Assembly: GCA_949294085.1 (NCBI GenBank)
Contig: CASFFX010000004.1
Coordinates: 1 to 64,000, forward strand
Reading direction: 5' to 3'
Source: an uncultured bacterium
GTDB taxonomy: Bacteria > Elusimicrobiota > Elusimicrobia > Elusimicrobiales > Elusimicrobiaceae
Length of the DNA stretch: 64,000 nt
In this document: piece by piece, positions 45,284 through 49,204 of the stretch
How positions within the stretch are numbered: position 1 is the first letter of the stretch
How the letters are laid out: every line of letters starts with the position of its first letter
Made by a program: the position numbers and the translations under genes
Notes under the pieces: generated by a model
The model's input: the letters and a program-made list of their open reading frames with translations, nothing else
What the model was told of the DNA's origin: nothing
The model's database searches: none

Positions 45284-48200
45284 TTATTGTACCGGAGCCG
45301 CGTCATCCAAACTGCCGGGATTATTCTGGTTCAAATTGCCCGGTTTGTTCTTGTTGCGCTTGAAGAGGTTCTTCACGCCTTTCCACAAGCGGCCGGCTTC
45401 GTATTTCAGCGCTTTGACGAAGGTGGAGTTGACCATCATGCCCGGCGTTAAGAGGAGGCTCGCGCCCAGCGCAACACCCGCATACAGCAGGGAGATGGAA
45501 TCCATACCCGCCATGGAAGCTACGTACCCAGCCGGGATGGCGCCCAAGCCGCCGATGGCCATCGTCAGTGCCAAGATGGACGACAGTTCGCGGTTCTGTT
45601 TGGGATAGAGGTTCATAATATAGTCATACATCTGCGTAAAGTAGTTCCCCACCCCAAAGCTGGCAATCGCCGCGCCGGTAATCATCTGGCTGATGCTTCC
45701 GCCGGCCGTGGCCATAATGCCCGTACCGATAGCCGAAAGCGCAGAGCAGAAGATGTACATGCTGTCGGCACTGATGCGGCGGCTGATCAGGTTGCCGCCC
45801 AAGCGGCCGGCAATCAGCGGCACGTACAGCGAGCAGGCAATCAGGAAGTTGGCAAATTCGCCCTGGTCAATCAGCGTTTTCATCGTGCTGGCAAACGAGC
45901 TGGAAATAACGAACTCGTGTACGGTGGCCAAGGTCATGGCGGTCGTCAGCGCAGCAACCCCCGGGGCCTTAAGCATTTTGGCCATATTGCCCAGCGTATT
46001 TTCCTGCACGGACAGTGAGGACCGCACTTGCGCGACGATGTCTGCCGCTTTGTCGGCCGGCATGCCGTGCACATTGACCAGCTGAGAACCAAAGCTCTTC
46101 AATAAGGTTTCTTTTTCCTGATTGTACAAATCGGATTTTCTCTGCTTCGGATTGATTTTAATGTCCGAGAATACCCGCGCGTCCAGCGCGTCCTTAAAAG
46201 CACGGGCAACGTCGTCAATCTGCGTGGAAGTAATTTTGCCTTTCACGCCTGCCACCGCTTTCGCACCCGAAGTCAGCGTCAATTCCAAATTCTTCCGGCT
46301 TTGTTCCAGGTTCTTGGCGGTGTAAGCATCACGCAGGCGGGCACGCCACACTTTCCAGGCCACATAGCCGCTGTACACCGCATAGATCGGGAAGCTGATG
46401 GAGTAATCCAACCCCAAGTCCGTACCCGTCGCCAGCATAATGCCTTTGTTAATCAAGTACGGCGAAGCCAAGAACGCCAGCGTTCCGATGTTTTTGTACA
46501 CAAAGCTCAAGTTGTAAAGCACCACGTCTTTCAAGCTGACGGACGACTTCTTGGTAAAGAATTCTTTCATGCGCTGAGCCAATTGCTTAAAGCCTTGTTT
46601 TTCCGGCTCGGTCATTTGCGTTTCCGCTTTTTTCAACGCGTCGGTGGCCTCATCCAGGATGACTTCCCCGCGGTTGGCGCGGATTAACATATTGGACACC
46701 AGCTGTTTTAAGATGGACGAACCGCTCATTAAGAACAGCGCCGTGATGAACAGCCCTTTGGACACGGGGCCCAACGTCATCCCGTCCACAAATCCGTAGA
46801 AACCGCCCGCGCTGGCCAAAATACCCGCCGCGCTGGACATAACCAACGACAGCACCATCATCTTCTTTTCGCCGTATTTCTTCAGCATCGGCGTAAGCAC
46901 AGAGGCAAACCCCGGCAGCATGTAGTTGATGATGAACATCAAACTGTTGGCCGCGCTGACGCTGATATTCAACGCCCCGTTGACCACAGGGCCCATCGTC
47001 TTGCCCAAGCTGACGTTCGTCAGCGAAGCGTCGCGCATAATCAAATCGGCCCGGTTCTGCGTGGGATGTACGGAAACGTTAAACTGCGTGGGGCTCTTGC
47101 GCAGCACTTTGACGAAATTGCCGATCTGGTTCTTCGGCAAGCGCACGTAGTAGCCGTTTAACGCATAGGGTTCCGCCGCGCCTTCTTTCAAAATACCCAG
47201 CGCGCCGTTTTCCATTACCACCACTTTGGCCCCTTTGGGCAAGCTTTTGCGGGGCAGTTCAATTTCCAGCGGCAATTCTTTGCCGGTTACAAAATCAAAC
47301 GCAGGCACCTGGACGGCTTTATAAGCCACGTCCGGGTTGCTTTCCAACTTAAGGCTAAATTTTTCCACACCCGCCGCTTGAATCAAATCGGCCAGCGCGC
47401 CCACCTGGTTGGCTTGCAGGCGCATGTAGAAGTGGGACATGACCAGCGGTTTTTGCGACTGATTGCGCAGTTCCGCCACGTAGCCCAGTTTATAATCGGA
47501 GTGGGCGGCAAACGCAATGCGGTTATATCCTTTGACGCGGAAACGGTTGCTGATTTCCAAATTGACGGGCAAAATGCGTTCCACGCCCTGTTCGTCAATG
47601 AGCGTCAGCTTTAAGCCTTTTTCCGATACCGGGATCAAGCTCGTTTCGTTGGCGCTGATGACTTCATCGGCGGCGGCGGGGAATTCCGGCGAGCGCAAAT
47701 TGCTGAAAACTTCGTGAATTTCGGTATCGTCATGCAGGCCGGGTTCTTCTTCAACGACAGCTGCCTTTTCCTCCGGAGCGGCGGCAGGGGCTTTGCGTCC
47801 CAGTTTGGAGCGTACCCAGCCAACGGCTTTTTGGAACATCCCCCCCACAGCGTCCACCGGGATACCGCTATACAAGATACCCGCTTTGGCCGCGGTTTGC
47901 GCGGCTTCCAGGTTGGAAAGGCCTTGCTGCAGTTTAGTGGGCGCCTGCGCCGCCGGCTGTGCAGCCGCAGCAGCCGTTTGCGTGGTTTGTTCCGCCACAG
48001 CAATCGGCGCGACGTTCAAATCAATTCCGGAAAGGGCAATCTCCGGCAAATCCAAATCCAACGCGGGGGCCGGGGCCGCTTTGACGGGGGCCGCCGCTTC
48101 TTTTTTCAAAACGGGGGCTGCTTCCCGGGTGGTCCCCAGCGCCAGCCATTGTTCGGTAGCCTGGCGGGAGAAATTGGCGTTCAATTCGTTGGCAACGCAG

Positions 48201-49186
48201 CCCGATTTCAAGAACCCGGACATCGTGGCAGGAACGGACACTTCCGCCCCCGGCACGGCCGCAATTTGCACCGGCAGGCCCTTTTCCGCCGCCAAGGCGG
48301 CCAAATCCTGCCAGAAAGGCCCTTGCGCGTGGGTCAGCGCGGCCAGCTCTTCCAATTCTTTATATGCACCCTGGCGCAGCATACCGCGCGCCGCGATTAC
48401 AGCCGCCGTCTGTCCGAAAGCGCTTCCGGCAGCCGCTTTATAAAAATCCAACAGGGCGGCCGCGTCTGCCTTGGAACCCAACAAGCCTAACGCCCCCGCA
48501 GAAGCGAGCGCCTGGTGGCAAGACAATAAGGTTTGATAGGCGGGGCTCTTTTTATTCGTGGCATCCCGCAAAAGGGCGTTTAAGTCGTTCTGAGAAAGTT
48601 TAGAAAACGAAGCGGACCCTTTTTTCAAGTCCGCCCGATAAAATTCCACCGCTTTGGCAATCTGGTCCCCAGTCGCTCCGCCTTTGAGGGCCACCGTTAC
48701 AAATTCGTTGCGCAGCAGGCCCTGGCGGAAGGAAGCTTTGGGATAGCTTAAAATGCGGCTAGCAATTTTGTCCACCTGCCCTCCTTTAACGAGCGCACGA
48801 ATCGTGTTGCCGTTTTGGAGCAGCTTTTCCTGGACGGAGCGGTTAATCACATCGCGAAGAGTCGTGTTTTGTTGAGAGGAGAGAGCAACCGCACGCGAAA
48901 CCCGAGATTGATTTTGTCCCCGCACCGCCACATTGCGGGCCGTTTGAGAAAGATTTTTCTGCTTCGCCGCATTGCGGGCCGCTTTTGTCGCAGCTTCCCT
49001 AGCCGCAGTCCCCGCGGCCCCTTTGGAAAGCAGTCTGTTGTTGGTCTTTTGGGCCGCTTTTTTGCCCAAAACAGCCGAGGCCGCTTCTTCGGCCACGCGC
49101 CCGTTCAGGACGATTTGCGCCAGCGACGGGGAAACGCTGCTGACGAGAAGGCTGATGCTTAAAATAGCTGCGAGTATCTTGTTCAT
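45284..49186 (-). CDS. 1,300-residue fusion: exported N-terminal region plus MFS-like transporter
   Basis: A signal peptide (MNKILAAILSISLLVSSVSPSLA) opens the chain. Residues about 25-340 are helical and Ala-rich; 345-480 is a low-complexity Ala/Pro linker. About 490-720 is a beta-rich part containing a duplicated unit: MSHFYMRLQANQVGALADLI (near 583) and LNGYYVRLPKNQIGNFVKVL (near 674). From about 735 to 1260 there are roughly twelve membrane helices, with a long charged loop at about 850-890 (EATDALKKAETQMTEPEKQG) and another at about 980-1060, as in a major-facilitator transporter with central loop. The last 40 residues are Asn/Lys-rich. The whole looks like an exporter with a large periplasmic input domain. 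Substrate unknown. GAGGAG precedes the ATG. Confidence 0.8.
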   Translation of the reverse strand: MNKILAAILSISLLVSSVSPSLAQIVLNGRVAEEAASAVLGKKAAQKTNNRLLSKGAAGTAAREAATKAARNAAKQKNLSQTARNVAVRGQNQSRVSRAVALSSQQNTTLRDVINRSVQEKLLQNGNTIRALVKGGQVDKIASRILSYPKASFRQGLLRNEFVTVALKGGATGDQIAKAVEFYRADLKKGSASFSKLSQNDLNALLRDATNKKSPAYQTLLSCHQALASAGALGLLGSKADAAALLDFYKAAAGSAFGQTAAVIAARGMLRQGAYKELEELAALTHAQGPFWQDLAALAAEKGLPVQIAAVPGAEVSVPATMSGFLKSGCVANELNANFSRQATEQWLALGTTREAAPVLKKEAAAPVKAAPAPALDLDLPEIALSGIDLNVAPIAVAEQTTQTAAAAAQPAAQAPTKLQQGLSNLEAAQTAAKAGILYSGIPVDAVGGMFQKAVGWVRSKLGRKAPAAAPEEKAAVVEEEPGLHDDTEIHEVFSNLRSPEFPAAADEVISANETSLIPVSEKGLKLTLIDEQGVERILPVNLEISNRFRVKGYNRIAFAAHSDYKLGYVAELRNQSQKPLVMSHFYMRLQANQVGALADLIQAAGVEKFSLKLESNPDVAYKAVQVPAFDFVTGKELPLEIELPRKSLPKGAKVVVMENGALGILKEGAAEPYALNGYYVRLPKNQIGNFVKVLRKSPTQFNVSVHPTQNRADLIMRDASLTNVSLGKTMGPVVNGALNISVSAANSLMFIINYMLPGFASVLTPMLKKYGEKKMMVLSLVMSSAAGILASAGGFYGFVDGMTLGPVSKGLFITALFLMSGSSILKQLVSNMLIRANRGEVILDEATDALKKAETQMTEPEKQGFKQLAQRMKEFFTKKSSVSLKDVVLYNLSFVYKNIGTLAFLASPYLINKGIMLATGTDLGLDYSISFPIYAVYSGYVAWKVWRARLRDAYTAKNLEQSRKNLELTLTSGAKAVAGVKGKITSTQIDDVARAFKDALDARVFSDIKINPKQRKSDLYNQEKETLLKSFGSQLVNVHGMPADKAADIVAQVRSSLSVQENTLGNMAKMLKAPGVAALTTAMTLATVHEFVISSSFASTMKTLIDQGEFANFLIACSLYVPLIAGRLGGNLISRRISADSMYIFCSALSAIGTGIMATAGGSISQMITGAAIASFGVGNYFTQMYDYIMNLYPKQNRELSSILALTMAIGGLGAIPAGYVASMAGMDSISLLYAGVALGASLLLTPGMMVNSTFVKALKYEAGRLWKGVKNLFKRNKNKPGNLNQNNPGSLDDAAPVQ

Positions 49187-49204
49187 AGTAGGCTCCTCTC
49201 TCTC

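What the first reader, a model, noticed from the sequence alone, without database searches (positions are those of the whole stretch)
45284..49186. Transporter with a 700-residue exported front half
A cleavable-looking signal peptide, a helical Ala-rich segment, an Ala/Pro linker and a duplicated beta unit precede an MFS-like membrane domain with long internal loops. MFS proteins normally begin inside the membrane. The duplicated unit FYMRLQANQVGALADLI / YYVRLPKNQIGNFVKVL could be a sensor or ligand-binding pair. To me this looks like a lineage-specific family.
Basis: partly seen in the sequence, partly recalled or inferred. Interest (0 to 1): 0.6.

Follow-up and report, generated by a model that had tools for sequence, protein, structure and literature searches.

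The report
Exported-domain MFS fusion of gut Elusimicrobiaceae
A family of very large gut-bacterial membrane proteins joins an ordinary transporter fold to a secreted, fast-changing front domain; it is found only in one bacterial family, and how its chain threads through the membrane does not yet add up, which makes it a clean experimental question.

Summary
One intact 1300-codon gene (45284-49186, minus strand) with a strong ribosome site encodes a signal peptide, an all-helical solenoid-like domain (about 104-350), a disordered Ala/Pro linker, a truly duplicated beta unit (hhalign E 1e-9) and an MFS domain (AlphaFold2 pTM 0.77; structural Z up to 34.6).

Relatives were found only in Elusimicrobiaceae, with 2-6 matches in many genomes. 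The gene sits at one fixed locus (dGTPase-coaD | gene | PHP-NifU-SecA).

"700 exported residues" is not secure. Signal peptides are found in 48 of 52 members, and charge bias sets the MFS core in the normal orientation, so the N-terminal side of helix 1 should be cytosolic. Yet in the window's subfamily nothing hydrophobic lies between ectodomain and MFS, and helix 1 is very polar. I favour about 440 exported residues and a cytosolic beta pair, at about 0.45.

Beyond the finding: at the same locus other species carry a different ectodomain on the same beta-MFS part. Contigs of six of twelve contiguous MAGs break in the ectodomain half. The MFS helices are much less hydrophobic than those of 10 ordinary MFS proteins of this genome.

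Best reading: an inner-membrane transporter or receptor-transporter with an exchangeable exported module.

The parts
45284..49186 (-). whole gene, 1300 aa, SP-ectodomain-beta pair-MFS fusion
   Evidence: intact full-length orthologues at 63-72% identity in at least 6 further species
49193..49200 (-). ribosome binding site GAGAGGAG, 6 bases before the ATG
   Evidence: read directly
49115..49186 (-). signal peptide, residues 1-24; 67-96% identical in close orthologues although the next 79 residues are only 14-23% identical
48878..49114 (-). variable Ala-rich stretch after the signal peptide, residues 25-103
48137..48877 (-). all-helical solenoid-like domain, residues 104-350 (HEAT/Arm-like by eye and by weak structural matches)
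   Evidence: best Z 8.8, not discriminating for helical repeats
47882..48136 (-). disordered Ala/Pro linker, residues 351-435
47792..47881 (-). conserved G-[VI]-L-Y-[SG]-G-[IV]-P motif plus basic amphipathic helix, residues 436-465; sits near where other subfamilies have a true mid-chain transmembrane helix
47630..47791 (-). second linker with conserved PGLHD, residues 466-519
47333..47629 (-). beta unit 1, residues 520-618
47057..47323 (-). beta unit 2, residues 622-710
46970..47053 (-). MFS helix 1 slot, residues 712-739: broken, very polar, invariant K729
46343..46960 (-). MFS helices 2-6, residues 743-948, motif-A-like loop LKKYGEKK, long loop 4-5
45959..46342 (-). helical cytosolic loop 6-7, residues 949-1076
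45449..45958 (-). MFS helices 7-12, residues 1077-1246; Pfam MFS_1 match 1085-1247
45287..45448 (-). C-terminal tail, residues 1247-1300: basic amphipathic helix, G/N/P linker, conserved end LDDxAPxQ

Best explanation
It is an inner-membrane MFS-fold transporter (or a receptor-like former transporter) carrying an exported recognition module. The Sec signal peptide sends the N-terminal helical domain and its Ala/Pro linker (up to about residue 440) to the periplasm or cell surface. The chain comes back to the cytosol near the LYSGIP/basic-helix segment, the duplicated beta unit docks on the cytosolic face, and a 12-helix MFS core of normal orientation follows. The ectodomain binds a ligand or partner outside and couples it to the MFS core. 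The ectodomain is the fast-evolving, exchangeable part; the beta pair plus MFS is the constant part. Shown: architecture, MFS fold, duplication, lineage restriction within what was searched, fixed locus, ectodomain exchange at that locus. Strongly inferred: signal peptide works, core orientation. Weakly inferred: re-entry near residue 440, cytosolic beta pair, active transport, ectodomain as binder.
For: Signal peptide family-wide. MFS fold. Loop charges: all seven predicted cytosolic segments net positive (+1.2 to +5.5), all six predicted outer loops net negative. Invariant charged or polar residues in the membrane part (K729, K898, R1128, Q1185; E1091 nearly so) argue for more than an anchor. 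Subfamilies with other ectodomains have a clear transmembrane helix after them (apparent insertion energy about 0 to 2 kcal/mol) followed by basic residues. A 4512-aa relative has receiver domains, normally cytosolic, in front of the beta pair and MFS. Same-locus relatives L066 and L069 carry a different ectodomain.
Against: In the window's subfamily no segment between the ectodomain and the MFS scores as a membrane helix (best 2.2-4.5 kcal/mol; the LYSGIP segment itself 2.5-6), and several members (L011, L013, L031, L061) lack the motif. Substrate, direction and activity are unknown. The 4512-aa relative's start lies by an assembly gap, so absence of a signal peptide there is unsure.
Confidence: 0.45

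Rival explanations
1. The whole 700-residue front half, beta pair included, is outside. Helix 1 of the MFS no longer crosses the membrane, leaving 11 crossings, so N-out and C-in.
For: Helix 1 is broken in the model (712-722 and 732-739) and extremely polar in the subfamily (4-8 kcal/mol). It needs no extra crossing and fits the members without the LYSGIP motif.
Against: AlphaFold2 and structural alignment put this stretch in the canonical helix-1 slot. An equally polar helix 1 (4.8 kcal/mol) follows receiver domains in the 4512-aa relative, where it should cross. The stretch before helix 1 is net positive (+1.9).
Confidence: 0.25
2. The MFS part is mainly a membrane anchor for an exported, hypervariable surface or recognition protein; transport has been lost.
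For: Ectodomain half diverges far faster than the core (54% against 82% identity in close orthologues, linker 28%), is exchanged at the locus, and is where contigs break in 6 of 12 contiguous MAGs.
Against: Invariant charged residues inside the MFS helices across 56 relatives; a 12-helix fold is an expensive anchor.
Confidence: 0.2
3. The protein is exported further (outer membrane, vesicle or another cell), its weakly hydrophobic helices being an adaptation against insertion in the inner membrane, as for many type III/IV-secreted membrane effectors.
For: Median apparent insertion energy of the 12 best helices is 0.9-3.2 in 56 members against 0.07-0.64 in 10 ordinary MFS proteins of this genome, no overlap. 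Moderate helix hydrophobicity lets secreted membrane effectors escape SRP (PMC12981334). A C-terminal motif LDDxAPxQ is conserved and absent from ordinary MFS proteins of this genome.
Against: The charge pattern is that of a normally inserted inner-membrane MFS. A Sec signal peptide is not the route of those effectors. No secretion system was linked to it.
Confidence: 0.05

Closest known systems
Major facilitator superfamily (Pfam PF07690; nearest solved folds FLVCR1/2, SotB, G6PT1, SPNS2, MdfA)
   Same: 12-helix two-bundle fold, motif-A-like basic loop 2-3, cytosolic loop 6-7, canonical charge pattern
   Different: Cleavable-looking signal peptide, large ectodomain, duplicated beta unit before helix 1, very polar helix 1, 128-residue loop 6-7, helices much less hydrophobic than ordinary MFS proteins of the genome; about 11% identity to the nearest solved structures, so substrate cannot be read from them
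Armadillo/HEAT-type helical solenoids
   Same: All-helical stacked hairpins; ALGLLG..DA..LL.FY-type repeats look HEAT-like by eye
   Different: No Pfam repeat model matches; structural Z at most 8.8, below the level that separates helical repeats from chance
Elusimicrobium minutum 3968-aa protein (in the genome of 1,643,562 bp, the size I recall for strain Pei191)
   Same: Signal peptide, exported domain, mid-chain helix, beta pair, MFS
   Different: Two MFS domains and C-terminal trypsin-like domains with Cys in the nucleophile position

Membership tests
Major facilitator superfamily | significant match to the MFS profile | tested here: met
   MFS_1 E 3.1e-8, 33.4 bits, at the gathering score of 33.4; in the genome search the single best stretch gave 32.9 bits, just under it; paralogue L002 is clear at 1.7e-13
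Major facilitator superfamily | 12-helix fold of two six-helix bundles | tested here: met
   AlphaFold2 model, helices 1-12 assigned, helix 1 weak (pLDDT 71-77); Z 34.6 over 374 residues, rmsd 3.1, to FLVCR2
Major facilitator superfamily | N- and C-termini of the core in the cytosol | tested here: inconclusive
   charge pattern agrees but a family-wide signal peptide without a hydrophobic re-entry segment conflicts
Major facilitator superfamily | transport of a solute | not testable with these tools
   needs an experiment
Sec-exported protein | n-region, hydrophobic core, A-x-A-like cleavage site | tested here: met
   MNKILAAILSISLLVSSVSPSLA|Q; 48 of 52 relatives; cleavage itself not tested
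HEAT/Armadillo solenoid | match to a repeat profile or a clear structural match | tested here: inconclusive
   no Pfam repeat match in 17 members; weak structural matches only
Anti-phage defence proteins | match to a PADLOC model | tested here: inconclusive
   none for four members; absence excludes only described systems

The most novel reading that the evidence does not exclude
A single chromosomal locus in gut Elusimicrobiaceae carries a constant beta pair plus MFS part onto which different exported ectodomains are placed between a conserved signal peptide and a conserved linker, with variation also inside species. That would be a diversifying exported recognition system built on a transporter, with an unusual membrane topology (short re-entry at LYSGIP or an 11-crossing MFS).
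Probability: 0.2. Interest if true: 0.75.

Novelty: new variant of a known kind. Interest (0 to 1): 0.5.

Why it matters
MFS proteins are the largest group of secondary transporters and, as far as I know, begin in the cytosol. A whole family in which a Sec signal peptide and a large exchangeable ectodomain precede the core would break a topology rule or show a new way to keep it. The locus would also give a first handle on what gut Elusimicrobiaceae recognise or take up; no description was found in the open papers searched. The topology conflict is a two-fusion experiment.

Tried and rejected
Two separate genes or a frame change at the linker: rejected, one open frame, fused in many species. 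Chance duplication of the beta unit: rejected. Intragenomic repeat as the cause of the contig breaks: in this genome the N-half matches only 129 bp at 68% and 37 bp elsewhere; in G092 its counterpart is 66% identical, too little to break assembly. A simple rule linking mid-chain helix and helix-1 hydrophobicity across subfamilies: does not hold. One-sided contig breaks (18 to 0) as evidence by themselves: not counted, because the search pattern lay near the C-terminus and makes such a bias likely; I rely on the absolute frequency in contiguous MAGs instead (6 of 12, binomial about 2e-5 at 5% expected; rough, since species are not independent). Common origin of the window's ectodomain and those of the larger subfamilies: not shown (hhalign probability 1.7%). 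Substrate from structural neighbours: not attempted, identities about 11%. The membrane-insertion score is my own implementation of the published position-dependent scale from memory; only comparisons made with the same code are used.

Full report
What is there. The gene is a single intact ORF, 45284-49186 on the minus strand, 1300 aa, with GAGAGGAG just before the ATG. It lies 413 bases downstream of coaD on the same strand, with a PHP-domain gene converging on it; there is no sign of an operon with functional neighbours. Pfam finds only MFS_1 at 1085-1247.

Anatomy. Residues 1-24 are a signal peptide. Residues 25-103 are Ala-rich and hardly conserved. Residues 104-350 are an all-helical, solenoid-like domain, 351-435 a disordered Ala/Pro linker, 436-465 a conserved [G][VI]LY[SG]G[IV]P motif plus a basic amphipathic helix, 466-519 a second linker, 520-710 the beta pair, 712-1246 the MFS domain, and 1247-1300 a basic tail ending in LDDAAPVQ. 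Two AlphaFold2 models were made from the window's own alignments: 90-740 (mean pLDDT 79, pTM 0.50; ordered parts above 90, linker about 40) and 485-1281 (mean pLDDT 83, pTM 0.77).

The duplication is real: profiles of the two beta units match at 96% probability, E 1e-9, over 83 columns. Each unit is a run of strands, one helix and a last strand in the model. K613, R682, P684 and K685 are invariant in 56 sequences.

The MFS fold is secure: every top structural match is an MFS transporter, best Z 34.6 with 374 residues at 3.1 A. Helix 1 is broken and weak in the model, but alignments begin there (model residues 224-226), so it occupies the canonical slot.

Family and distribution. The own genome has two paralogues: a 920-aa protein with the same type of ectodomain joined directly to an MFS (L002; no beta pair seen), and a 1519-aa protein (L033) with a long C-terminal helical part and a weak MFS match. 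A scan of about 85,000 bacterial and archaeal species genomes with one C-terminal peptide pattern gave 51 relatives, all in records titled Elusimicrobia(les)/Elusimicrobiaceae/Elusimicrobium/Avelusimicrobium or unnamed gut bins. A profile search of 150 genomes of the phylum found it in 38, all in one family, three genera; none of the listed genomes from other families had it. One of them has a single contig of 1,643,562 bp, which I recognise from memory as E. minutum. Both searches have limits: the first depends on one pattern, the second on sampling.

Subfamilies. Complete relatives differ mostly at the front: the window type; a type without the beta pair (L002, L043, L044); types with a long C-terminal part (L033, L039-L041); types with other ectodomains of 550-700 aa closed by a clear transmembrane helix (L035-L037, L066, L103, L104, L106); a 3968-aa E. 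minutum protein with two MFS domains and trypsin-like domains; and a 4512-aa relative with TPR, ankyrin, receiver and 3C-like protease domains.

Fixed locus, changing front. The neighbours dGTPase, coaD on one side and PHP, NifU, the SH3-like protein and SecA on the other recur around the gene in about 40 of 51 named loci. L066 and L069 are at this very locus but have the other ectodomain, so the front was exchanged while the beta pair and MFS were kept. Within close orthologues of the window type identity is 73% in the signal peptide, 16% just after it, 54% in the helical domain, 28% in the linker, 74% in the beta pair and 82% in the MFS helices. A signal peptide as conserved as membrane helices is unusual. 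In 18 of 51 loci the contig ends inside the gene on the front side. Of 12 genomes of the genus with at most 10 contigs and the gene found, six are cut there (G015, G016, G029, G083, G121, G137; contig lengths). In G002, G015, G016, G083 and G121 the coaD-side contig also ends 47-105 codons into the gene, so the missing piece is the ectodomain. Strain variation is the likely cause, since large near-identical repeats were not found in the genomes tested, but it was not shown directly.

The topology conflict. (1) A signal peptide is family-wide. (2) In 56 sequences the charge of every loop fits the canonical MFS orientation, so the chain before helix 1 should be inside. (3) In the window's subfamily no stretch between ectodomain and core is hydrophobic enough to cross. 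These cannot all be simply true. Either the LYSGIP/basic segment brings the chain back, or helix 1 does not cross, or the domain is not exported. The receivers of the 4512-aa relative, followed by the same kind of polar helix 1, favour a cytosolic beta pair; members lacking the LYSGIP motif favour the second option. I rate the first at about 0.45 and the second at 0.25.

Weak helices. With one and the same score, the 12 best helices have a median of 2.4 kcal/mol in the window protein and 0.9-3.2 in 56 relatives, against 0.07-0.64 in 10 ordinary MFS proteins of the same genome. This fits Sec-dependent, late insertion, or substrate-lined helices; an exported destiny is a remote possibility. Secreted membrane effectors of other bacteria use moderate hydrophobicity to escape SRP (PMC12981334).

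Function. Invariant charged residues in the helices (K729, K898, with E1091 nearly invariant) suggest a working cavity. What it moves is unknown. Verdict: an ordinary fold in an unusual, lineage-specific architecture; a new variant of a known kind, worth a topology experiment.

Noticed in passing
L102:3757-15660 (E. minutum-sized genome): 3968-aa protein with signal peptide, mid-chain helix, two MFS domains, beta pair and C-terminal trypsin-like domains; motifs GFCGSP, YCGSAL, GFCGAP put Cys where trypsins have Ser.
   Followed up: partly
L131:90-13625 (G097:C9): 4512-aa ORF with TPR, ankyrin, receiver and 3C-like protease domains before the beta pair and MFS; an N in the sequence near its start suggests an assembly gap.
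   Followed up: partly
L130:1-157 (G002:C33): Fragment resembling residues 475-515 of this gene fused in frame to a second coaD copy; could be a rearrangement or a chimeric contig.
   Followed up: no
window 45284-45330 and many relatives: Conserved extreme C-terminus LDDxAPxQ (or PLPN/NN types in other subfamilies), not seen in ordinary MFS proteins of this genome.
   Followed up: partly
L057-L060: Same-locus relatives that carry a second MFS domain after the first (Pfam MFS_1 at 949-1328 in L057).
   Followed up: no
G000:C6:382071-391040: The 1519-aa paralogue lies in a cluster with three ordinary MFS transporter genes.
   Followed up: no
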